Assembly (NCBI GenBank): GCA_004762155.1
Contig: SIHP01000014.1
Location: 62,001 to 126,000, forward strand
Length of the DNA stretch: 64,000 nt
Reading direction: 5' to 3'
Source: Flavobacteriaceae bacterium
GTDB lineage: Bacteria; Bacteroidota; Bacteroidia; Flavobacteriales; Flavobacteriaceae
Part shown: positions 12,534-31,416 of the stretch, one piece after another
Layout of the letters: each line of letters starts with the position of its first letter
How positions within the stretch are numbered: position 1 is the stretch's first letter
Made by a program: the position numbers and the translations under genes
The notes under the pieces: model-generated
Seen by the model: the letters and a program-made list of their open reading frames with translations, nothing else
What the model was told of the DNA's origin: nothing
The model's database searches: none

Positions 12534-13610
12534 TTAATGAGAATGAGAATGTCCGTGGTCGTGACTATGTGAATGAGCGTGCGTAATTATTTCATTGTCT
12601 TTTGTTAATTCTATATTTTTACCAATAACAACCAAATTTGTTTTACGCTCTTCAGTAGCACCCCAAGGTCTTTCGAAATAATAATCGAAACGAGAACCTA
12701 CACCTTGTAAAACCATACGCATTGGTTTATTAGGAATATTTACAAAACCTTTAATTCTATAAATTTCGTGTTGCTCTGTAAGCGCTTTTAAATCCTTCAC
12801 TAAAGTTTTAATATTAGCAGTTTCAGTATGCTCTAATAAAACTGTTTTAATATCATCATTGTGATGGTGATGGTTTCCAGATTTATGGTGCTCTTCGTGA
12901 ATAGAATGACGATTATCTACATCATCTTCCGCAGAAGCCTCAATACCTAATAAAACAGCATTATCTACTTCACCTTTAACTAAAGGTACAATCCTCGTAT
13001 TTGGTCTTGCTTTCTCAGTAACAATTTTAGTTACTTCAGCAAATTTCTCATCATCAATCAAATCTCTTTTACTAACTAATACCAAATCAGCACAGACTAA
13101 TTGGTCTAAAAACAACTCCTCAATAGGTGTTTCGTGGTCTAAAGTATCATCCGCTAAACGTTGCGCTTGTACACGCTCTCTATCGCAAATTTCTCCCGTA
13201 GCAATTCCAACAGCATCAACTACAGTAATTACAGCATCAATAGTAATATGAGGCTTTAAATCTGGCCAGTTTACCGCTTTTACTAAAGGCTTTGGCATCG
13301 ATAAACCAGAGGTTTCTATAACAATATGGTCAATTTCTTCCTTACGCTCTAACAATTGTAACATAGACGGTAAAAACTCCTCTTGCACCGTACAACAGAT
13401 ACATCCGTTTGGCAACTGAATTAAATTACAACCATCATCATCACATTCCGACGATGCAATTAATTGTCCGTCTACATCTACCTCTCCAAATTCATTTACC
13501 AACACCGCAATGCGTTTTCCGTTGGCATTCTTTAGCATATTATGTACTAAAGTTGTTTTTCCTACCCCTAAAAATCCGGTTACTATGGTAATTGGTATTT
13601 TCTTGTTCAT
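12534..13610 (-). CDS. cobW: CobW-type G3E GTPase (metallochaperone)
   Basis: 358 residues. Walker A GFLGVGKTT (residues 12-20), the metal-binding GCICC (CxCC at Cys70-Cys73), the G3E switch/Walker B region (ETSGLSMPKP) and the 'SKRDL' guanine-specificity motif are visible, followed by the CobW C-terminal domain (RIKGFVNI…GVGSRFDYYFERPW). Two histidine-rich stretches, one around residues 235-250 and one at the extreme C-terminus (HSHSHDHGHSHSH), could bind metal. CobW proteins are GTP-dependent metal chaperones; next to cobN this one presumably delivers Co(II) to the late cobaltochelatase. Upstream lies a 535-bp repeat-filled gap. Confidence 0.93.
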   Translation of the reverse strand: MNKKIPITIVTGFLGVGKTTLVHNMLKNANGKRIAVLVNEFGEVDVDGQLIASSECDDDGCNLIQLPNGCICCTVQEEFLPSMLQLLERKEEIDHIVIETSGLSMPKPLVKAVNWPDLKPHITIDAVITVVDAVGIATGEICDRERVQAQRLADDTLDHETPIEELFLDQLVCADLVLVSKRDLIDDEKFAEVTKIVTEKARPNTRIVPLVKGEVDNAVLLGIEASAEDDVDNRHSIHEEHHKSGNHHHHNDDIKTVLLEHTETANIKTLVKDLKALTEQHEIYRIKGFVNIPNKPMRMVLQGVGSRFDYYFERPWGATEERKTNLVVIGKNIELTKDNEIITHAHSHSHDHGHSHSH

Positions 13611-13661: not shown

Positions 13662-13746
13662 GGGCGTTTCCCTATGGGTCGGGCTATACGCTATATCTTT
13701 TTTACCCTTGCGAGATAAAAAAGGATGTCGCTGTTATCCCTAACGC
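13662..13746. repeat. 85-bp imperfect foldback repeat
   Basis: Starts with GGGCGTT and ends with AACGC, so GCGTT (13664-13668) can pair with AACGC (13742-13746). Inside, ATCTTTTTTA (13695-13704) pairs with TAAAAAAGGAT (13716-13726) around the loop CCCTTGCGAGA region. The GC-rich words (GGGTCGGGCTATACGCTAT, GTCGCTGTTATCCC) stand out in AT-rich surroundings. From memory, elements with this GGGCGTT…CGGGCTATCCGCT…ATCCCTAACGC pattern are common between genes in Bacteroidota; their function is not known. Confidence 0.7.
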
Positions 13747-13868
13747 AAAACTTCACTTTCTTTATATTCGTTATTTCACTAAAAGTCTGTTTTATCTTTT
13801 TCTTGATAAAAAGAAACAAAAATCAAGACTTCTGATAAGAACTAAAAAATACTACGGTATCACCAGCC

Positions 13869-13913
13869 AAAGATGAAAAGAACTCGCTCTCGCTCAAACA
13901 GCTTTTCATCTTT
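13869..13913. repeat. Hairpin repeat with conserved 21-base loop (copy 1)
   Basis: A 12-bp perfect stem AAAGATGAAAAG / CTTTTCATCTTT encloses the loop AACTCGCTCTCGCTCAAACAG (21 bases; 13881-13901). Copy 2 at 20371-20409 has the same loop with one change but a different, still complementary stem. Stem change with loop conservation suggests that the folded form matters. Confidence 0.8.
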
Positions 13914-13997
13914 TTTGCCAACACTACTACCTTGATTTCTAAAATTCTTCTAAGTGTGTCGAAAATTAACTTAACTACTTTTAATATTTATTTGTTG

Positions 13998-14129
13998 TCA
14001 CTTCGAGTGAAATTATTTGTAATGCAATGAAAAATAATTTAGTATTGAGAAGTCGCAAATTATTCTCGATACAATTTTTCTTATGATTTCCACTTCGTTC
14101 AATCACAAGAAAAACCACTCGAACTGACA
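13998..14129. repeat. 132-bp element with 14-bp terminal inverted repeats (MITE-like)
   Basis: Ends are TGTCACTTCGAGTG (13998-14011) and CACTCGAACTGACA (14116-14129), reverse complements with one mismatch. Between them are three further hairpins: AAATTATTT/AAATAATTT, GTATTGAGAA/TTCTCGATAC (one mismatch) and TTTTTCTTATGATT/AATCACAAGAAAAA (one mismatch). As RNA it would fold as a closed multi-branched structure. No coding capacity. It could be a non-autonomous mobile repeat or a structured RNA. Confidence 0.75.
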
Positions 14130-14145
14130 TTCGTTAGATTTAACC

Positions 14146-14730
14146 CTAACTTTTTTTCTTCTTTCTCTTATATAAAAACAAGTTCCATTTTTCTTCAGCA
14201 ACACCGTGTTTATCCATTTCTGCTCTTGACATAGTAAAGAATAAATCAGACATTCTGTTTACATAACTCATAATATAATCGTGTACACATTCTGGGTCTT
14301 CTTGCATTAAGGTAACCAAAGTTCTTTCTCCTCTTCGCATTTGTGTTCTACAAACGTGACAAAGTGCAGATATTTCATTACCTCCAGGTAATAAAAAGTA
14401 ATCAGAAGGCGAACTAATTTGACTTTCCATTGCATCCATCCAAACCTCACAAAAATCAGCACCGTCTTTAGGCTCTGGATTCGGATTTTCTTTTTTAGAA
14501 TCAGATGGACGTGCTAAATGTGACATCATATTCATCATATCCTTTTGAATACGATGCAAATTTGGTTGCCATTCGTGGTCGTTTCCTAATTTAGAACGCA
14601 TTAAACCGATAGTAGAATTCACCTCATCTAAGGTTCCAATACATTCAATTCGTGCAGAATTTTTATAAGTTCTTTTCCCCCCAAAAACTCCGGTAGTTCC
14701 TTTGTCTCCTTTTCTTGTATAAATTTTCAT
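14146..14730 (-). CDS. pduO: PduO-type ATP:cob(I)alamin / cobyrinate adenosyltransferase
   Basis: 194 residues. The N-terminal KGDKGTTG (residues 7-14), the 'LDEVNSTIG' helix and the C-terminal 'RTQMRRGERTLV' and 'YVNRMSDLFFTMSR' motifs identify a PduO-type (trimeric five-helix bundle) adenosyltransferase, which transfers the 5'-deoxyadenosyl group of ATP to Co(I). A stretch around residues 78-95 (SDSKKENPNPEPKDGAD) is a longer, charged loop than I expect in the family. It is 3 bp from cbiA, so adenosylation follows a,c-diamidation in both pathway and operon. Confidence 0.92.
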   Translation of the reverse strand: MKIYTRKGDKGTTGVFGGKRTYKNSARIECIGTLDEVNSTIGLMRSKLGNDHEWQPNLHRIQKDMMNMMSHLARPSDSKKENPNPEPKDGADFCEVWMDAMESQISSPSDYFLLPGGNEISALCHVCRTQMRRGERTLVTLMQEDPECVHDYIMSYVNRMSDLFFTMSRAEMDKHGVAEEKWNLFLYKRKKKKS

Positions 14731-14733
14731 AAG

Positions 14734-16044
14734 TTAATCGTTTATTTGGTTAATCAATTGTAATAATTTTTCTGATGTACCAAAATAGTGATGTACATAA
14801 GAACCCATTACCTTATTTTTTTTATGAATTTTAGTGGTGGTTTCACCACCTCTTGCATTTGTAATTGTTGCTTCAATTGTTGTTTCATTATCGTTTACTA
14901 AACTTGAATAATGAAATTCATGTCCTTTAAAAACAGTTTCACCTATGGTAGATGTTCTATAACCCAAGTGCAACTTTTTATGGGCTATTGACGTTTCAAA
15001 ATCGAAATGATTTACCATTTCAAAAGCTTCGTAGTCTTTATCTATAATAGCTTTTCCTAAATACATCATTCCTCCACATTCAGCATATATCTGACCATTG
15101 TTTTGCCCAAAGTCTTTAATACTTTTAAGCATTGCTGTGTTAGCAGACAATTCTTTTGCATACATTTCAGGGTATCCACCAGCTAAATAGATAAAATCAC
15201 AATGAGGCAATACAGTATCGTGTATAGGACTAAAGTAAATCACTTCTCCTAAAGCTTCCATTGCCGAAATATTCTGCGGATATATAAAGTTAAAAGCCAT
15301 GTCTTTAGCAACAGCAAATCGTATGTTCTTGTTTACTGATGTTTTTTCTTCTGAAATAACTTTCGTTTCCACTTCTTTTGAAGCTTCTAAAATAGCTTTC
15401 CAATCCACTGTTTTGTCTAAAGCAATGGCAATCTCATGAATAAGAGCGTCAAACTTTTCAATTTCTTGAATATTCAAGCCTAAATGTCTTGACGGAATTT
15501 CAATATTTTTTAAGTTCGATAAATACCCAAAGCAAGGCACCTTAATATCGTCGCAAGCTTCTTTAAGCATTCCGTAATGTCTTTCCGAACCTACACGGTT
15601 AAATACAACACCCATTATGGCAACATCTTTATCAAAATTCACAAAACCTTGAATCAATGGCGCAACAGAATAGGCAACCGCTTTGGCATCAATCACCATT
15701 AAAACAGGTGTTTTTAATTTCTTAGCCATTTCAGCAGTACTGCCTTTATCTTTTTGAGCACCATCAAACAACCCCATTACACCTTCAATACAATTAACCT
15801 GAGCATCTTTACCATAATGATGTAAATACGCGTTGATTTCATCTTCCGACATCATAAATAAATCGAGATTTACACCAACTTTTTTACACGCCAATTGATG
15901 AAACTTTGGGTCAATATAATCGGGTCCAACTTTAAAAGGTTGTACCACAATATTTTTACGTTTCAATAAACGCAACAAACCTAAAGTAAGCGTGGTTTTA
16001 CCTGCATTACTGCTTGGTGCCGATATGATGAGTTGTTTAGTCAA
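14734..16044 (-). CDS. cbiA: Cobyrinate a,c-diamide synthase
   Basis: 436 residues in the usual two-domain layout. Residues 1-~230 are a P-loop synthetase domain with Walker A 'SSNAGKTTL'; residues ~245-436 are a class-I glutamine amidotransferase-like domain with the nucleophile in ECGGMMYLG (Cys323) and a conserved His-containing end (GSYVHHYFG). The enzyme amidates the a and c carboxylates of cobyrinate using glutamine and ATP. Genes on either side (chelatase ATPase 4 bp upstream, adenosyltransferase 3 bp downstream) make this a tight sub-operon. Confidence 0.94.
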   Translation of the reverse strand: MTKQLIISAPSSNAGKTTLTLGLLRLLKRKNIVVQPFKVGPDYIDPKFHQLACKKVGVNLDLFMMSEDEINAYLHHYGKDAQVNCIEGVMGLFDGAQKDKGSTAEMAKKLKTPVLMVIDAKAVAYSVAPLIQGFVNFDKDVAIMGVVFNRVGSERHYGMLKEACDDIKVPCFGYLSNLKNIEIPSRHLGLNIQEIEKFDALIHEIAIALDKTVDWKAILEASKEVETKVISEEKTSVNKNIRFAVAKDMAFNFIYPQNISAMEALGEVIYFSPIHDTVLPHCDFIYLAGGYPEMYAKELSANTAMLKSIKDFGQNNGQIYAECGGMMYLGKAIIDKDYEAFEMVNHFDFETSIAHKKLHLGYRTSTIGETVFKGHEFHYSSLVNDNETTIEATITNARGGETTTKIHKKNKVMGSYVHHYFGTSEKLLQLINQIND

Positions 16045-16048
16045 AATA

Positions 16049-17692
16049 TTATATACTCTTGGTTATTAAAAGTTCGTAATTCGCATTGATACGTTTGGCA
16101 AAATCAGAAGCAATTCCAATTTTCACCATTCCTTTTTCTGCATCTATAATTTGTGTACTGTTTATGCCTTTACAGTAGGTTTGAAAAGCCAAAACCGTAC
16201 TTTCTAAAGTACTATCTGCATTTAACTTACCATCGGTAATAATATGTAAGTTGTGATTAAAATCCACATCAGAAGAAATCCCTTTTACTTGTTTAAAACC
16301 TGCTGTTAAATTGGTTTTTCCTCCAGTTTTAATTGATGTTAATCCAATTTCAATATCTTTTAAAACAGCCGTTCTATGTAATATGTGTTGTGCTTCTCCA
16401 TCAAATAAAGAAACAATAGAAAATTGTGTGTTTTGATTTTTAGTTTGTGATGCTATTTTATCTACAGCTCCTTTTGCATAGGCTATAATTAGGTCTTTTA
16501 ACATAGAGCCACTCGAATCTATTAAAAAAATATGATGCTCTTTTAAAAGCGATTTTTTACGTTTGGTTTTTAATTCAAACTTATCGGTTGCTAAATACTG
16601 ACTTACCGTTTTCTTAGTATCAGTACTTGTTATATTTCCTGCGGAAGTGTTTATAGAACTCGTTCCTTTGTCAATAGTATTGATAGCCGTGTTTTTTAAT
16701 TTCTGAAAATCATTTTCAGGACTTAAAATATGAACATTTTCTTCTTGGGAAGCATTTCCGTCAGATGGCGATTCTTTTGGTTGCTCATTTTCGTTCTGAT
16801 TTGGTGGTTGCTGATTCGGACTGTTATTATTACTTCTATGATTCAATACAAAATCGGCAATTTTATCTACGGCTTCTTTGGTGACTTCTGATTTATTGTT
16901 GTATGAAGCATAAGCTCTTGCAGTTTTCAGTAATAAAATATCGGCACGTAAACCTTCTACTTCATGTTGTATAGCTAATTCACTACAATATTCAATAATA
17001 GCATCGTTTATGATTACCGAAGTTAATTTGTTTTTTGCTTTTGCTATTTGTGTAGCGATGCTTTCATCTTTACTTTTATAAATAGCTACAAACTCGATAG
17101 GATTATCATCAAACTGAAAGCGTTGCTTTATAATTTGCTGACGCACTTTAGCATCTTTAGTTGTAGTAATATTTACACTTAAACCAAAACGATCTTTTAG
17201 TTGAGGTCGTAAACTTCCTTCTTCAGGATTCATAGAGCCTACTAAACAAAATCTACTCTTAAAATAACGAGAAACTCCTTCGCGCTCTAAGTAATAGTTT
17301 CCAGAAGCCGAAGCATCTAACAAAATATCGGTTAGATAATCTTGTAATAAATTCACTTCATCAACATATAAAACACCTTTGTGTGCTTGTGCCATTAAAC
17401 CAAGATTAATGGTCTCCTTTTTTGCATTAATCAATTCCTCTAAATTGATACTACCAATCAATCGGTCTTCCGAAACACCAATAGGCAAATTCACAAAAGG
17501 TAACTCCTCTTGGTTGCTCATTAAGTTGGTTAACGAACGAATTAATGTCGTTTTCCCTGTTCCTTTATCGCCAATAGCTAAAACACCACCAATAAGCGGG
17601 TCTAACAAGTTTAAGATAAGCGCTAACTTAAAATCATCCTGACCTACAATGGCAGAAAACGGAAAATTGATTTGTTTTTTATCTGTAGTCAT
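16049..17692 (-). CDS. ChlI/ChlD-like chelatase ATPase (AAA+ plus VWA in one protein)
   Basis: 547 residues. N-terminal AAA+ domain: Walker A GDKGTGKTT (residues 41-49), Walker B 'VLYVDEVNLL', sensor-like 'LVGSMNPEEGSLRPQLKDRF'. A Pro/Asn/Gln-rich linker (around 292-320) joins it to a C-terminal VWA domain with the metal-ion site DSSGS (residues 392-396). This is the arrangement of magnesium-chelatase subunits I and D merged into one chain. In genomes with CobN but no CobS/CobT-type chelatase subunits, such ChlID proteins are taken to power cobalt insertion. It overlaps the permease gene by one base. Confidence 0.9.
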   Translation of the reverse strand: MTTDKKQINFPFSAIVGQDDFKLALILNLLDPLIGGVLAIGDKGTGKTTLIRSLTNLMSNQEELPFVNLPIGVSEDRLIGSINLEELINAKKETINLGLMAQAHKGVLYVDEVNLLQDYLTDILLDASASGNYYLEREGVSRYFKSRFCLVGSMNPEEGSLRPQLKDRFGLSVNITTTKDAKVRQQIIKQRFQFDDNPIEFVAIYKSKDESIATQIAKAKNKLTSVIINDAIIEYCSELAIQHEVEGLRADILLLKTARAYASYNNKSEVTKEAVDKIADFVLNHRSNNNSPNQQPPNQNENEQPKESPSDGNASQEENVHILSPENDFQKLKNTAINTIDKGTSSINTSAGNITSTDTKKTVSQYLATDKFELKTKRKKSLLKEHHIFLIDSSGSMLKDLIIAYAKGAVDKIASQTKNQNTQFSIVSLFDGEAQHILHRTAVLKDIEIGLTSIKTGGKTNLTAGFKQVKGISSDVDFNHNLHIITDGKLNADSTLESTVLAFQTYCKGINSTQIIDAEKGMVKIGIASDFAKRINANYELLITKSI

Positions 17693-18405
17693 TATGCGAA
17701 AACAGTATTATACGTCCAAACAATACCAATAATTATAGAAGCAATTCCGGCAATACCATTCATCCACTTAAAAATAGATAAGTTACGTTCTAAAAATCGA
17801 CTCATTACATAAATTAGAACATAACTATATACACCCATAGCTACAATAATCCCTAAAGACTCTACTGCAAGAATAAGAATAGCATCCATTATTGTAGGAC
17901 TACTTAATACCAATGCAGAAGTTAATGCTCCACCAGTACCAGCTAAACCGTGTAGCATACCAATCCAAAACGATTTGTTCATTGGATTTACAGCGATTTC
18001 TTCACCTTTGGTTCCGTGTAAATGTATTGGGTTTGATAGTTCGTGTTCGTGTGCTTCAATTTTTTTATGATCTTTCACCATTTCATTAATAGCGTGGTTT
18101 CTTTTAATAGCAACAATACCTAACCAAATCATAATTGGTCCAACAGCAACTTCAGCATAAAAAGAAATGTCTTCAACCACTAAGGAAGCCATACTTTTAA
18201 ATAATAAAGCTACTCCACCAAAAAGTAAAAGTGTTGCAGAATGTCCAAAAGCCCATTGCGATGCTTTTAATACAGTTATAAAACTAACCTTTTCTTTATT
18301 GATAGCATTTTCAGTAGCTAATACCGAAACAGCTGTAACATGATCTGGCTCAAAAGAATGTAAAATCCCAGCCATTAAAGGTCTAACTAAAGAAGTAAAA
18401 GTCAT
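17692..18405 (-). CDS. Nickel/cobalt permease-like membrane protein (NicO/UreH-like)
   Basis: 237 residues with about six membrane segments. The first helix carries HSFEPDH (His16, Asp21, His22), close to the H-x4-D-H metal signature of NiCoT/RcnA-type permeases, and a later helix has 'GMLHGLAGTGGALTSAL'. A histidine-containing loop (HEHELSNPIHLHG) lies between helices. In this operon, between cbiD and the chelatase ATPase, cobalt uptake is the natural reading; nickel transport or a TauE/UreH-like function cannot be excluded from sequence alone. It overlaps cbiD by one base. Confidence 0.78.
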   Translation of the reverse strand: MTFTSLVRPLMAGILHSFEPDHVTAVSVLATENAINKEKVSFITVLKASQWAFGHSATLLLFGGVALLFKSMASLVVEDISFYAEVAVGPIMIWLGIVAIKRNHAINEMVKDHKKIEAHEHELSNPIHLHGTKGEEIAVNPMNKSFWIGMLHGLAGTGGALTSALVLSSPTIMDAILILAVESLGIIVAMGVYSYVLIYVMSRFLERNLSIFKWMNGIAGIASIIIGIVWTYNTVFA

Positions 18406-19484
18406 TATTTATTATATTTTATTAGTGTTCCGTTTTTATGAATTAAGTAAATGTTTAAGTCTACTTGTCTTATTTTTGTATGTGTATAACAGTGTGCTAA
18501 TAACAATTGAAAGAAAGGCGAGTTTTGTTCAAACTCAAATAATTCAATCAGTCTACCAGCCATATTTAAAGCTTTGATTTTCTCAGCATCTGAAAAACCA
18601 ACTTGTTTAGCTAAATCAACTACAAAATCTTTATTCCAACTAGATACACAACTATGCGTATCTGTAATTCCGCCTGCTAATTTTACAGCCTTTCCTAACA
18701 TAATTCCAATACTCACTTTTGTAATAGTTGATGAGGTATTAATTTTGTTTAAAGTTTCACCAATCCAATTTCCATAATGGATAAAAGCATATTCAGGCAA
18801 GTGATTAAACTTTTTAGATAGAAACTTTTCACTTCTTGCTCCAGAGTTAATAACCAATTCGGTTACATTATTAGAAACCGCCACATCAATACCTTGTTCT
18901 ATACTTGCTATATATGATGATGACGAATATGGTTTTACAATACCTGTAGTTCCTAAAATAGATAAGCCATTCATAATACCCACACGTTCGTTTAGGGTAC
19001 GTTTAGCTATCTTTTTTCCATCTGTTACATAAACCGTAACCGAAACACCGCACTCTAAATCGTAATCGTGTAATAATTTTTGTAGTGCGCTGGTTATCAT
19101 TTTTCGTGGCACAGGATTAATAGCAGGTTCGCCAATAGCTAACTCTAAACCTTTAAGTGTAACCGTACCAACACCTTCACCAGCAATAAACTTAATATCT
19201 TTTTCTTGCGTTAATTTTAAAATACAACCAATTTCTGCACCATTAGTAACATCTGGATCGTCACCAGCATCTTTAATCACCGAGCAGTTCGCAGTACTTT
19301 CGGTAAACACACAATGATGAATGGGAATCTCAACTATTTTATCTACAGGCAAGTGTACCTTAACGCTTGTGTTTTTTTGTTGATGAATAATAGCCATCAA
19401 ACCAGCTTTAGCTGATGCTGTAGCACAAGTACCCGTTGTAAATCCGTCTCTTAATGGCCCTTTAGGAACTTTTCTTAAACTCAT
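18405..19484 (-). CDS. cbiD: Cobalt-precorrin-5B (C1)-methyltransferase
   Basis: 359 residues. The N-terminal 'LRDGFTTGTCATASAKAG' is the family signature, followed by the conserved 'DAGDDPDVTNGAEIG' and 'GVGTVTLKGL' blocks. CbiD methylates C1 after ring contraction in the early-cobalt-insertion ('anaerobic') route. Its presence rather than CobF supports that route. It overlaps cobK by 4 bp (ATGA), indicating translational coupling. Confidence 0.95.
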   Translation of the reverse strand: MSLRKVPKGPLRDGFTTGTCATASAKAGLMAIIHQQKNTSVKVHLPVDKIVEIPIHHCVFTESTANCSVIKDAGDDPDVTNGAEIGCILKLTQEKDIKFIAGEGVGTVTLKGLELAIGEPAINPVPRKMITSALQKLLHDYDLECGVSVTVYVTDGKKIAKRTLNERVGIMNGLSILGTTGIVKPYSSSSYIASIEQGIDVAVSNNVTELVINSGARSEKFLSKKFNHLPEYAFIHYGNWIGETLNKINTSSTITKVSIGIMLGKAVKLAGGITDTHSCVSSWNKDFVVDLAKQVGFSDAEKIKALNMAGRLIELFEFEQNSPFFQLLLAHCYTHTKIRQVDLNIYLIHKNGTLIKYNK

Positions 19485-20257
19485 AGTTGTGAAATATTAG
19501 TAGAAGAAGATGAAGTAATTGTTATCAAATTTTGCAATTCTGTTTCATTAAAGACTTGCGTAAAGTATGCAGGTACTCCTGGTTGGTTGATAATGATAAT
19601 CTGTGTATCTGTTTTTAAAGCCGATTCAATTTTGGTACTTAAAAAACCACTATTACCTGTTTCTTTGGTTAAAATAATATCAATCTGATGTGTTGTAATC
19701 AAGTCGATTTCTTTTGCTAAGTTGTCAGATGGCAAACCTAAAATTAATTGACTTTTAGGGAAGTTACTTTCATTAGCAATAGCTATAGACTCAGGTCTGT
19801 TTAATATTCTAAAATACGATGTATTCGTTTGCCACCAAGAGCTTAATCGTTTAATAGATTGTACGCCTGTTAAGGCTAATACTATTTTGTTTTCTTTGAA
19901 TAAGCTTAAAGCCTCATCATAAGAACTCACATAAGACACTAATGGGTGTGTTGTTTTAGCTAATAATTGTCTTCCAAAACGTAATACAGGTATCTGTAAA
20001 CGTTCCGCAACCTTAGCTATAGTACAGTGTAATATTTCAGCAAACGGATGCGAAGCATTTACAATAGTTTGTATCTTATTGTTAAGTATATATTTTGCTA
20101 ATTGCTTTTCATCTAAAGCACCGTGTCGATAACTGGTAATTTTAGTATTTTCAAAAGCAATTTTTGTTTTTGTAGAATACACGAAAGGTAACGCCATACT
20201 TTCTAATAAAGTGGCTGTTTTTTTACCTTCTGTTGTTCCTCCAAAAACTAATATCAT
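19481..20257 (-). CDS. cobK: Precorrin-6A / cobalt-precorrin-6A reductase
   Basis: 258 residues. The start 'MILVFGGTTEG' is the NADPH-binding loop of CobK/CbiJ, with 'ASHPFAE' and 'LTGVQSIKRL' further on. The enzyme reduces (cobalt-)precorrin-6A to -6B. The last few residues (ITSSSSTNISQL) extend past the usual core and overlap cbiD. Upstream is a 294-bp gap with two repeat elements that separates it from the cbiG-cbiF fusion gene. Confidence 0.92.
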   Translation of the reverse strand: MILVFGGTTEGKKTATLLESMALPFVYSTKTKIAFENTKITSYRHGALDEKQLAKYILNNKIQTIVNASHPFAEILHCTIAKVAERLQIPVLRFGRQLLAKTTHPLVSYVSSYDEALSLFKENKIVLALTGVQSIKRLSSWWQTNTSYFRILNRPESIAIANESNFPKSQLILGLPSDNLAKEIDLITTHQIDIILTKETGNSGFLSTKIESALKTDTQIIIINQPGVPAYFTQVFNETELQNLITITSSSSTNISQL

Positions 20258-20370
20258 TATTCTTTAATTTATATGATTAACATCCTTTTCTTTTTTCCAT
20301 TGATTAAAAAAGAAACAAAAAAATCTAGTCTTATTAATTCTTCATTTATAAAACCTCATCCTCGAAACTA

Positions 20371-20409
20371 AATTAAAAGAACTCGCTATCGCTCAAACAG
20401 CTTTTAATT
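20371..20409. repeat. Hairpin repeat with conserved 21-base loop (copy 2)
   Basis: Stem AATTAAAAG (20371-20379) / CTTTTAATT (20401-20409) encloses AACTCGCTATCGCTCAAACAG, identical to copy 1 at 13869-13913 except one base, while the outer stem bases differ compensatorily. An outer pair GAAAC (20364-20368) / GTTTC (20416-20420) can extend it. Upstream sequence around 20296-20326 (TTGATTAAAAAAGAAACAAA) also resembles the sequence before copy 1. Confidence 0.8.
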
Positions 20410-20504
20410 ATTAACGTTTCTTGCGGTGAATTTTATAATTCGACTTAAATATGACAAAACTAAAATTCACTGATGTCATTACGTTTTGCAATAACTTGAT
20501 TTAA

Positions 20505-20537
20505 AGACCTCACAGGTTTTTAAAATCTGTGAAGTCT
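20505..20537. repeat. 33-bp palindrome (copy 2, two mismatches)
   Basis: Left arm AGACCTCACAGGTTTT (20505-20520) is identical to copy 1; right arm AAAATCTGTGAAGTCT (20522-20537) carries two changes, leaving G-T pairs in one RNA strand. It lies 15 bp beyond the stop codon of the cbiG-cbiF gene, between it and cobK. Confidence 0.8.
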
Positions 20538-20551
20538 AAAACTAAATCGTA

Positions 20552-22393
20552 TTACTCTGTTACTACAAATTTCTTATTGGTTCTAAAAATATGTTTCCAT
20601 TCAGGACTGTATAATTGCGAACGGTTCTTACGAGCACCAATAGCATGACCAACTACAATTAATACGGTTCTTGTTTTCTTACTCTTCTTTACAATAGAAG
20701 CTAATTCAGATAATTTTCCTTGGAAAATCTCTTCATCCTTCCAAGAGATTCTGTACATCACAGCAACAGGTGTGTCAGGGTCAAAATGTTCTAATAATTG
20801 ACCTTCTACTTTCTTCGCAATTCCAGCACTTAAGAAAATACACATCGTAGCATTAGTTGCAGCAAAGGCACGAATACTTTCTTTATTAGGCATTGGTGTT
20901 TTTCCTTCCCCACGTGTTAATACAATTGATTGTACTACTTCAGGAATGGTAAATTCCGATTTTAATACGGCCGCAGCGGCACTAAAGGCAGAAATACCAG
21001 GAACAATAAAGTAATCCATTCCTAATTCATCAAAAATGGTCATTTGCTCTTGAATAGCTCCGTATAAAGAAGGGTCTCCAGATTGTAAACGCACAATTGA
21101 ATTTCCTTTTTTATAATGTTCTTGCATTATAGAAACTTGCTCTTCTAAAGTCATCATTGCAGAGTTTCGTACAATAGCACCTGGTTTACACCAATTGGTC
21201 ATTTCTTCAGGCACTAAACTACCTGCGTATAATACACAATCAGCTTCCTGTAAATATTTTTTTCCTTTTACAGTAATTAATTCTTCATCACCAGGACCTG
21301 CACCAATTATGGCAACAGCAGTTCTTCGTTCTGCATTAGTATCAATAGCTACAGCGAACGTAAACTTTTCACCATTATCTAAATGAATTTTTTGCTTTTC
21401 AACTAATACATTGTTGTTTCCAGACAATAACATTGCAGTAGATTCGGAAACACCATCGACTCCAATTTTAGACTGTACCATTTCACTCGGGTTAGGTACG
21501 GTAATCGTATCTATTGCATCCGAAGTAAAAAAGCTAAAAGGAATGGCGTTATTAGTACTGAAATCTAAATACGCTTGTTGGGTTGCTTTGATGTCTATAG
21601 AACCAAAATTCTTAATAGCTGAAAAGTGAATGTTTCTATTTGCTAATTCTTCTTTTAAAGTAGTATCAAAAAGTGAGGTATCTAATTGTTTAGAACAACC
21701 TGAACCCACAGACAACACTTTTGGAATAAAGCACAGGCTCGGAATACTTACTTCGTATATCTTATAACTCACTACAATACATAATTCGAATTGGGTATAA
21801 TCAATATCAGCTTCACTATAAAAAACAGAAACAAAATTTGGAACCGTTTTCTCTAAATGCTGTGTTCCTTTATCTTTAAGATCTAACAATAGGACAGTAG
21901 GTTTATTATTTACAAACAACGCCATTGTTTTGTTCATAGATAATGAAGTTTCTATTTGCCAATCGAATTGAGTTCCTAAAGTATCTAATGCCCAAATGTT
22001 CTGAACATCGCTAGAGGTAGATATAATAGGTTTCGCTCCTAAAACGCTAGCAATTTTTGATGTAAAATCATTTGCACCACCTTTATGTCCGCTTAATACC
22101 GATTGTACATTTAACCCTAAATCATCCACAGAAATTACAGCAGGGTCAGTGTTTTTATCTTCAAGGTGCGGTGCAATTAAACGCACACAAATTCCTAAAG
22201 CAGAAACAAAACAAATACCATCTAACTTCGCAAAATTATCATCAAGATAACTTGAAATAGAGACAATAGTTGATACATTTTTATTAGTAGAACTTAAGGT
22301 AGTTATTACTAATGATTTTGGGAATTCTTGCTGAATTATAAGAGCTTTTTCAAGGCCTTTTTCAGTAACTGCTATAATGGCTATTTTCTTCAT
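20552..22393 (-). CDS. cbiG-cobM: CbiG–CbiF/CobM fusion: cobalt-precorrin-5A hydrolase and precorrin-4 C11-methyltransferase
   Basis: 613 residues. Residues 1-~345 match CbiG: 'VSALGICVRLIAPHLEDKNTDPAVISVDD', 'LSGHKGGANDF' and the late 'VGSGCSK' block; CbiG opens the delta-lactone and releases the two-carbon fragment. Residues ~358-613 are an S-adenosylmethionine-dependent tetrapyrrole methylase: 'IIGAGPGDEELITVKG', 'DCVLYAGSLVPEEM', 'RLQSGDPSLYGAIQEQ'. This is CbiF/CobM, which methylates C11 directly before the CbiG step, so the fusion joins consecutive reactions. It is adjacent (0 bp) to the cbiE-cbiT gene. Confidence 0.93.
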   Translation of the reverse strand: MKKIAIIAVTEKGLEKALIIQQEFPKSLVITTLSSTNKNVSTIVSISSYLDDNFAKLDGICFVSALGICVRLIAPHLEDKNTDPAVISVDDLGLNVQSVLSGHKGGANDFTSKIASVLGAKPIISTSSDVQNIWALDTLGTQFDWQIETSLSMNKTMALFVNNKPTVLLLDLKDKGTQHLEKTVPNFVSVFYSEADIDYTQFELCIVVSYKIYEVSIPSLCFIPKVLSVGSGCSKQLDTSLFDTTLKEELANRNIHFSAIKNFGSIDIKATQQAYLDFSTNNAIPFSFFTSDAIDTITVPNPSEMVQSKIGVDGVSESTAMLLSGNNNVLVEKQKIHLDNGEKFTFAVAIDTNAERRTAVAIIGAGPGDEELITVKGKKYLQEADCVLYAGSLVPEEMTNWCKPGAIVRNSAMMTLEEQVSIMQEHYKKGNSIVRLQSGDPSLYGAIQEQMTIFDELGMDYFIVPGISAFSAAAAVLKSEFTIPEVVQSIVLTRGEGKTPMPNKESIRAFAATNATMCIFLSAGIAKKVEGQLLEHFDPDTPVAVMYRISWKDEEIFQGKLSELASIVKKSKKTRTVLIVVGHAIGARKNRSQLYSPEWKHIFRTNKKFVVTE

Positions 22394-31219: not shown

Positions 31220-31240
31220 CTATTATAAATTATTATCATA

Positions 31241-31372
31241 GTGGCAGGTCTCCTGACTCAACTCAATATTCATCTACCTTCCCATAGTTTAGCTACAGTG
31301 GTTTTTATTAATGAATACTTTTAAGTTTTACAGTTGCGGGAACAGTTTTGGAATTACACCAAATTCCCTTTT
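31241..31372 (-). promoter_or_regulatory. Cobalamin riboswitch
   Basis: Read on the minus strand, the conserved parts appear in order: GGGAATTTGGTGTAATTCC at the 5' side, CCCGCAACTGTAA (the B12-box neighbour; 31329-31341), CCACTGTAGC, GGGAAGG, and GTCAGGAGACCTGCCAC (31241-31257), the highly conserved 3' block. It lies about 100 bp upstream of the TonB-dependent receptor start. Adenosylcobalamin or another cobalamin would repress the receptor and, through the long co-directional run, the B12 biosynthesis genes down to cobN. Confidence 0.95.
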
Positions 31373-31408
31373 AATTTTTACGAAAACGTAAAAAACCATT
31401 TGATATGG

Positions 31409-31416
31409 CAAATCTA
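31409..31416 (-). promoter_or_regulatory. Candidate -7 box for the riboswitch transcript
   Basis: Minus-strand TAGATTTG fits the Bacteroidota -7 consensus TAnnTTTG and lies ~40 bp upstream of the riboswitch, overlapping the stop codon of the preceding ATPase gene. I see no convincing TTG -33 element at the right spacing, so this is tentative. Confidence 0.3.

What the first reader, a model, noticed from the sequence alone, without database searches (positions are those of the whole stretch)
13869..20409. Two hairpins with a nearly identical 21-base loop and covarying stems
Copies at 13869-13913 and 20371-20409 share the loop AACTCGCT[C/A]TCGCTCAAACAG (20 of 21 bases) while the flanking stem differs (GATGAAAAG/CTTTTCATC versus AATTAAAAG/CTTTTAATT) and remains fully complementary. 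Loop conservation plus compensatory stem change is the signature of selection on a folded form, RNA or cruciform. Both lie in gaps of the same operon. This could be a widespread but unnamed flavobacterial element.
Basis: seen in the sequence. Interest (0 to 1): 0.66.

Follow-up and report, generated by a model that had tools for sequence, protein, structure and literature searches.

The report
Mobile two-hairpin repeat, fixed internal loop
The two hairpins are tips of two copies of a small mobile DNA repeat whose helices change in step while one 13-base internal loop stays fixed, and the same tip turns up in several bacterial phyla, which points to an unknown factor that recognises it.

Summary
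Both hairpins are real and beyond chance. Each is only the tip of a ~165-170-nt unit: a long bulged hairpin (H1), a T tract, and a second hairpin (H2). A covariance model finds 9 units in this genome and 132 in 34 of 95 genomes of the genus. Helices covary strongly, also outside the model's training set. The "21-base loop" is not a loop: CTGTTTGA/GAGTT is an internal loop, capped by a hairpin of free sequence; 27 of 29 distinct caps close with at least two pairs, 3.8 expected. The units behave as mobile repeats: the same gaps in relatives lack them, and unrelated sites in two species share only the unit. The tip is not specific to flavobacteria: 100 of 115 copies from several phyla have complementary arms. 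No Rfam family or REP class tested fits. Best reading: a REP/MITE-like non-autonomous element whose folded single strand is recognised at the internal loop. The enzyme is unknown, and a role in the transcript is not excluded.

The parts
13824..13960 (-). Copy 1, hairpin H1 (class B of the family), between BtuR (14146-14730) and CobW (12534-13610)
   Evidence: covariance model R1 match, 91.0 bits, E 2e-15; read; a trimmed form (13824-13958) is in the model's training set
13872..13910 (-).
13881..13901 (-). Copy 1, conserved tip: internal loop CTGTTTGA (13894-13901) / GAGTT (13881-13885) with cap GCGAGAGC (13886-13893)
13795..13814 (-). Copy 1, hairpin H2 (TCTTTTT-ATCAAG-AAAAAGA) after the T tract
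20325..20455 (-). Copy 2, hairpin H1 (class A), between cbiG-like (20552-22393) and cbiJ (19481-20257)
   Evidence: covariance model R1 match, 104.5 bits, E 3.3e-18; this copy is in the model's training set
20371..20409 (-). Copy 2, upper stem AATTAAAAG/CTTTTAATT around the conserved tip
20380..20400 (-). Copy 2, conserved tip: internal loop CTGTTTGA (20393-20400) / GAGTT (20380-20384) with cap GCGATAGC (20385-20392)
20287..20315 (-). Copy 2, hairpin H2 (TTTCTTTTTT-AATCAATGG-AAAAAAGAAA) after the T tract

Best explanation
Both hairpins are tips of two copies of one dispersed, non-autonomous mobile repeat (~165-175 bp in this family) that acts as a folded single strand. SHOWN: its anatomy. The base is a covarying G-N-C/G-N-C pair. 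H1 is a long hairpin with bulges and G.A-rich internal loops. Near its tip lies a fixed internal loop CTGTTTGA/GAGTT between two helices of free sequence. A tail CTWGATTTTT and hairpin H2, mostly with an ATCAATG or ATCAAG loop, follow. SHOWN: the unit occurs as a whole at unrelated sites and is missing from the same gaps of relatives. INFERRED: an enzyme or host protein recognises the fixed internal loop (and perhaps the H2 loop) on a single strand exposed during replication or transcription, and the unit is copied or moved into intergenic gaps, in the way REP or IS200-type elements do. The helices only need to pair, so they drift with compensation. INFERRED: in Flavobacteriaceae the copies mostly lie in the direction of their neighbour genes, so they are probably transcribed and may affect mRNA ends as a side effect.
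For: Mobility: of five relatives that carry cbiJ, none shows the unit in the 330 nt read upstream of it, and three relatives with BtuR followed by CobW lack it in that gap. The model finds none anywhere in G003, G018 or G040. L067/L070, 8-kb stretches of two species with unrelated flanks, share only the 174-bp unit at 93%. Families inside one genome have sharp common ends, by eye. Fold: the covariation score beat all 500 shuffles and every slid control, in both sets. Fixed internal loop, variable cap. The base W of CTWG is tied to the H2 loop type, A with CAATG 47:0 and T with CAAG 31:0. One strand is constrained: mismatches on the tip strand are G.T 278 against A.C 144, and G.A 525 against C.T 119, in 198 scored of 300 copies. 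Betaproteobacterial copies form divergent dimers, 9 of 9 pairs closer than 300 bp in two genomes. No neighbour gene family is enriched.
Against: No mobilising enzyme was found. Y1 transposase (PF01797) is absent from G491, G507, G354 and G196, which hold several or many copies, and only 1 of the 30 PF01797 loci held (of 52 matches) has a copy within ~1.5 kb, there an IS200-type gene that sits inside a copy. No target duplication or exact single-event empty site was shown. Copy number in carriers of the genus is low, 1-14. Co-directional placement in Flavobacteriaceae (25 against 5) and in a mixed set of further copies from multi-copy genomes (16 against 4) is also what an RNA role would give. 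No match to one query each on plasmids and phages. Compensatory changes in palindromes can also arise from template switching, without selection (general knowledge).
Confidence: 0.55

Rival explanations
1. The unit is a structured RNA that works in the transcript: as a 3'-end, processing, stability or attenuator element bound at the internal loop by an RNA-binding protein. Mobility is only how it spreads.
For: Co-directional with both neighbour genes in Flavobacteriaceae (25 against 5) and in a mixed set of copies from multi-copy genomes (16 against 4). G-T pairs outnumber A.C (40 vs 14 and 35 vs 19). H1 is followed by a T tract in nearly all units aligned. Both window copies lie inside an operon on its sense strand.
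Against: No orientation preference in the GTDB set (13 against 12; convergent 17, divergent 5). No link to any gene family. Presence is patchy even in the same gap. No terminator-like site is called there. No expression data.
Confidence: 0.25
2. A MITE moved by an ordinary double-strand transposase that reads its ends; the fold and the shared tip are by-products of palindromic origin.
For: Units of G505 and G510 end in an inverted repeat GTAACTA(C/T)TCA. Sharp ends in multi-copy genomes.
Against: The tip strand is enriched in G.A over C.T mismatches (525 vs 119). A fixed internal loop with a drifting, pairing cap is not expected of a by-product. Flavobacterial units carry H2 outside the terminal pairing. 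Repeats with different ends share the same tip.
Confidence: 0.13
3. An intrinsic terminator, or a regulator specific to the cobalamin operon.
For: H1 followed by a T tract; both window copies are in the B12 operon.
Against: 132 copies in 34 genomes of the genus; neighbours of diverse copies unrelated; absent from the same gaps of relatives; consensus scan finds no terminator.
Confidence: 0.04
4. An integron attC-type recombination site with gene cassettes.
For: Same-strand series of copies at ~300-bp spacing; one gammaproteobacterial copy first looked attC-like to me.
Against: Of five such regions run, four are tandem duplications, 88-97% matching, and one gave no row. The attC-like copy belongs to a repeat with its own inverted ends.
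Confidence: 0.02

Closest known systems
REP / BIME elements with GTAG or CGTC tags (Di Nocera 2013, PMC3733652: abstract and passages read)
   Same: Short intergenic palindromes downstream of genes, between co-directional or convergent genes, often as inverted dimers, presumed non-autonomous mobile.
   Different: H1 spans 126-141 nt in the alignment set, not 20-40; no GTAG/CGTC tag; a second hairpin; a fixed internal loop with a variable cap; 1-14 copies per carrier genome in this genus.
'Atypical secondary structures' that flank TnpA-Y1 subclass 2.6 genes in Bacteroidetes (PMC6006769: passages read)
   Same: Same phylum, folded repeats with copies elsewhere in the genome, no GT[AG]G foot.
   Different: Their sequences were not seen, so not compared. 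Here 29 of the 30 PF01797 loci held have no copy nearby, and several carrier genomes lack PF01797.
Bacterial MITEs (NEMIS, RUP, ERIC and others; PMC3733652 and PMC10969869, passages read)
   Same: Size, AT-rich intergenic sites, fold-back structure; G505/G510 units have terminal inverted repeats.
   Different: A fixed internal loop between covarying helices and the H2 hairpin were not met in what I read on MITEs; no parent insertion sequence was identified.
GUCCY-hairpin and Flavo-1 motifs (Weinberg 2010, PMC2864571: table rows and passages read)
   Same: GUCCY-hairpin is a Bacteroidetes/Proteobacteria hairpin of uncertain nature; some units here start GTCCT. Flavo-1 sits in the same gap as copy 1.
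   Different: GUCCY-hairpin carries no Rfam number in that table and its alignment was not seen, so identity can be neither shown nor excluded. Flavo-1 is a separate 76-nt element.

Membership tests
GTAG/CGTC REP | 20-40 bp palindrome | tested here: not met
   H1 spans 126-141 nt in the A2 set; unit 174 bp in L067/L070
GTAG/CGTC REP | unpaired GTAG or CGTC tag at one end | tested here: not met
   5' end of most units is G-N-C-(C/A)-T; the G-N-C/G-N-C helix is paired in 99.1% of cells
GTAG/CGTC REP | dimers in opposite orientation | tested here: met
   9 of 9 pairs closer than 300 bp in G501 and G496 are divergent, 204-293 bp; in the flavobacterial genus same-strand series and single copies are common
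REP with RAYT (Y1 transposase) | PF01797 gene flanked by the repeat, present in carrier genomes | tested here: not met
   1 of 30 loci held (of 52 matches) has a copy nearby; PF01797 absent in G491, G507, G354, G196
MITE | terminal inverted repeats | tested here: inconclusive
   GTAACTA(C/T)TCA ends in G505/G510; flavobacterial units have H2 outside the terminal pairing
MITE | target-site duplication and a parent insertion sequence | not tested
   no exact empty site from a close relative; no parent element searched for beyond PF01797
Integron attC | array of different gene cassettes | tested here: not met
   of 5 arrays run (8 or more noted), 4 are tandem duplications and 1 (L495) gave no row
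Integron attC | linked integron integrase | not tested
   no search for the integrase was made
Rfam families (release 15) | match at gathering score on the unit | tested here: not met
   none on the units in the window or in 19 other loci that hold copies; only low scores far under the gathering scores at E up to 10

The most novel reading that the evidence does not exclude
CTGTTTGA/GAGTT is an old recognition module: a fixed internal loop bound by one conserved, still unknown factor, carried at the tips of mobile repeats with otherwise different ends in at least five bacterial phyla (phyla judged from record titles). Repeats would be built by setting this module into any palindrome, and the module, not the transposase, would explain their success.
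Probability: 0.35. Interest if true: 0.82.

Novelty: new variant of a known kind. Interest (0 to 1): 0.62.

Why it matters
The palindromic repeats I read about are grouped by end tags and transposases, not by a shared inner recognition site. Here one internal loop keeps its sequence while the helices on both sides change, and the same tip occurs in several phyla in repeats with different ends. That makes a testable prediction: one factor binds the loop. It also gives a covariance model with which such gaps can be annotated, and it warns that a structured, covarying intergenic element need not be a fixed non-coding RNA gene but may be a mobile repeat.

Tried and rejected
A strictly DNA reading from the cap was tried and weakened. 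Many caps are GC-GNA-GC or GC-GNNA-GC, which I recall (no call) as unusually stable DNA mini-hairpins, d(GCGAAGC) type. A pattern that leaves the cap free then showed Flammeovirga subfamilies with GC-AAA-GC and GC-TTTA-GC, and the genus showed long free caps, so the cap's loop is not fixed. Integron cassettes: rejected. Y1 transposase as general mobiliser: not supported. Link to B12 genes: rejected. Plasmid and phage copies by blastn: none, for one query each. Papers: six 15-base pieces of the tip gave none, six strings of a related repeat known to me gave one unrelated paper, and keyword searches on Flavo-1, long hairpins and internal loops gave none. K-turn likeness of the internal loop was considered from memory only and not tested. 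The 'reversed' control of the genome search is not independent here, because the tip is close to a mirror repeat.

Corrections to my own steps. Searches used 80 of the 117 GTDB loci held; searches put L207-L243 and some viral loci in the wrong groups. One search repeats the arm, mismatch and orientation tests on the full, rightly grouped set and replaces them; it leaves out 10 of 125 copies without full flanks and 102 of 300 copies whose arms align too weakly to score. In one search my script misread three caps and missed six hits; one search replaces it and leaves out 2 of 53 distinct hits (L505 and L511:3590-3709) without a readable GAGTT. One row of the 'further matches' (L479) is also in the training set. 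For one search I gave 96 of the 100 distinct neighbour proteins listed (four short ones dropped); one search drew on 80 of 117 GTDB loci and 13 viral-contig loci. One search left out L207-L243. Viral-contig hits include groups without pairing arms and carry no phylum claim.
Full report
OBSERVATION. The 21-mer is found twice, and never in 100 shuffled windows. Both copies lie on the sense (minus) strand of a cobalamin operon: one between a CbiG/methylase gene and cbiJ, one between a BtuR-type adenosyltransferase and a CobW gene. A cobalamin riboswitch (31226-31414) and a Flavo-1 RNA (13673-13751) are the only Rfam matches in the window at gathering score.

THE UNIT IS LARGER. Genus and family surveys with strict tip patterns found it in 16 of 97 and 27 of 397 genomes. 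Reading 69 distinct copies and aligning them showed that the hairpin is the tip of a long hairpin H1. H1 starts G-N-C-(C/A)-T and ends G-N-C-T-W-G in most units. A T tract and a second hairpin H2 follow. Two 8-kb stretches from two species (L067, L070) share only this unit, 174 bp at 93%, in unrelated surroundings. Two more such pairs share about 257-265 bp.

COVARIATION. On 38 flavobacterial copies (A2), 21 pairs were counted: 92.6% of cells pair (72.1% shuffled), 166 cells changed on both sides (53.8 shuffled), score 0.544 (0.160). No shuffle of 500 reached these three values, and slid versions score at most 0.171; for the number of pairs with a double change 1 shuffle of 500 reached the observed 15. 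A model built from A2 was run over 95 genomes of the genus: 132 matches in 34 genomes, 9 in this one. The counts were repeated on 67 matches (53 distinct; 66 of 67 not in A2). This alignment is fitted to the model, so it leans towards the structure: 93.8% paired (75.0%), 170 double changes (48.4), score 0.438 (0.127), slid versions at most 0.091. The shuffles do not allow for shared descent; the slid versions do in part.

THE 'LOOP' IS AN INTERNAL LOOP. In 51 readable of these 53 units, the 5' side is CTGTTTGA in 38 and a one- or two-base variant in 13. The 3' side is GAGTT in 49; the other two read GAGTTA and AAGTT. Some caps, as I read them, repeat the G.A/G.A step inside, for example ATGC-GA-CC..GG-GA-GTAT beside ACAC-GA-CC..GG-GA-GTGT. 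So the fixed part is an internal loop between two helices of free sequence.

H2 AND A LONG-RANGE TIE. A script found a hairpin of at least seven pairs in the 60 nt after H1 in 80 of 90 units, 54 of them distinct. Most have an ATCAATG or ATCAAG loop with differing, complementary arms; a few are other hairpins, and no shuffled control was run. The base W in the CTWG that ends H1 is A with a CAATG loop in 47 units and T with a CAAG loop in 31, with no exception in 78 classed; 12 of 90 units could not be classed. For T, CTTGAT is complementary to ATCAAG. Whether this is an alternative hairpin, a pseudoknot or joint recognition is open. Related copies are counted, so the test is not independent of descent.

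WHICH STRAND. On the tip strand, mismatches within the arms are G.T 278 against A.C 144 and G.A 525 against C.T 119 (198 scored of 300 copies). The GTDB set alone gives 92:50 and 224:46. A neutral double-stranded palindrome should give equal numbers. The constraint therefore acts on one folded strand, DNA or RNA.

BEYOND FLAVOBACTERIA. I estimate about 22 chance matches in the whole collection (own arithmetic, equal base frequencies). Of 125 copies, 115 had full flanks, and 100 of 115 have strongly pairing arms, against 22 of 341 with swapped arms and 55 of 345 with shuffled arms. Single genomes hold up to 78 tips. In two Betaproteobacteria the 9 pairs closer than 300 bp are all divergent, 204-293 bp apart. 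In two Gammaproteobacteria the units end in GTAACTA(C/T)TCA repeats. In other held loci outside the genus, 136 of 222 TGTTTGA..GAGTT sites have paired outer arms, 129 with a GC-N3-5-GC cap and 7 with others; these loci were mostly chosen by the canonical tip.

MOBILITY AND CONTEXT. The cbiG-cbiJ gap of G003 and G040 is 18 and 25 nt with no unit, against 294 nt in this genome; in G018 it is 157 nt with other palindromes. G002 and G045 show no unit in the 330 nt upstream of cbiJ. In the BtuR-CobW gap, G003 has no repeat, G018 only another palindrome, G040 only Flavo-1. The model finds no unit anywhere in G003, G018 or G040. Multi-copy genomes show sharp common ends, by eye. Four of five same-strand series run are local tandem duplications (none called in L495). 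Among 96 neighbour proteins of diverse copies no Pfam family occurs more than twice. Copies with close ORFs on both sides are co-directional with both in 25 against 5 cases in Flavobacteriaceae and 16 against 4 in a mixed set from multi-copy genomes, but 13 against 12 in the GTDB set, where convergent gaps (17) exceed divergent ones (5).

MECHANISM. I favour a non-autonomous mobile repeat recognised as a folded single strand at the fixed internal loop (0.55). Shown: fold, strand, fixed loop, dispersal. Inferred: the factor, the single-stranded step, the copying. The main rival is a working RNA in the transcript (0.25). PF01797 was tested as mobiliser and not supported: absent in 7 of 24 genomes, among them G491 with 41 and G507 with 32 strict tips, and 29 of the 30 PF01797 loci held (of 52 matches) have no copy nearby.

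KNOWN OR NEW. It works like REPs and MITEs, but fails defining REP features (size, tag, RAYT link). No Rfam family matches. A Bacteroidetes/Proteobacteria 'GUCCY-hairpin' of 2010 has no Rfam number in that paper's table and its alignment was not seen; identity with it is not excluded. My paper searches were made; no title or abstract start that they listed names this motif, within an open-licence library only. I read passages of five papers: PMC3733652 (with its abstract), PMC6006769, PMC12306157, PMC10969869 and, fetched by DOI, PMC2864571.

Noticed in passing
window 13673-13751 (-) and L099 2247-2325: Flavo-1 RNA (RF01705) is present in this BtuR-CobW gap and in that of G040, but not seen in the gaps of G003 and G018; it too looks like a patchy intergenic repeat rather than a fixed RNA gene.
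   Followed up: partly
window about 13997-14128: A separate long palindrome of the type GTCAGTTCGAGTG...CACTCGAAGTGAC lies next to copy 1; a relative of it is alone in the same gap of G018. Three unlike repeats stand in series in one gap.
   Followed up: no
window about 20505-20537: A near-perfect palindrome (AGACTTCACAG...CTGTGAGGTCT type on the minus strand) stands right after the cbiG-like gene; G018 has a similar one without the unit.
   Followed up: no
L400 (G079:C1:892900-895200): A PF01797 gene with an internal stop lies inside the 3' arm of a third unit, between two further units on the other strand.
   Followed up: partly
L052, L059, L403, L502, L496: A 45-55-bp piece (about ...TTTTTATTGGTTT..TTCATGAATCTCC...) stands at the H1/H2 junction of some units, in both orientations.
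   Followed up: no
L494 840-1426 (G000:C7), L496, L497, L499: Local tandem duplications of unit plus neighbouring repeat, periods 300-446 bp, 88-97% matching.
   Followed up: yes
own genome, G000:C1:48822, C21:288828, C7:9935 and C7:10235: In four copies of this genome the cap is a 33-nt piece with TCTTTCGACT.CGCTCAAGATAAACT, itself repeat-like.
   Followed up: partly
L263 (viral contig 2908087089): The tip sequence recurs four times at 3114-3116-bp spacing in one contig of the viral collection, in a group of contigs where the tip lacks pairing arms.
   Followed up: no
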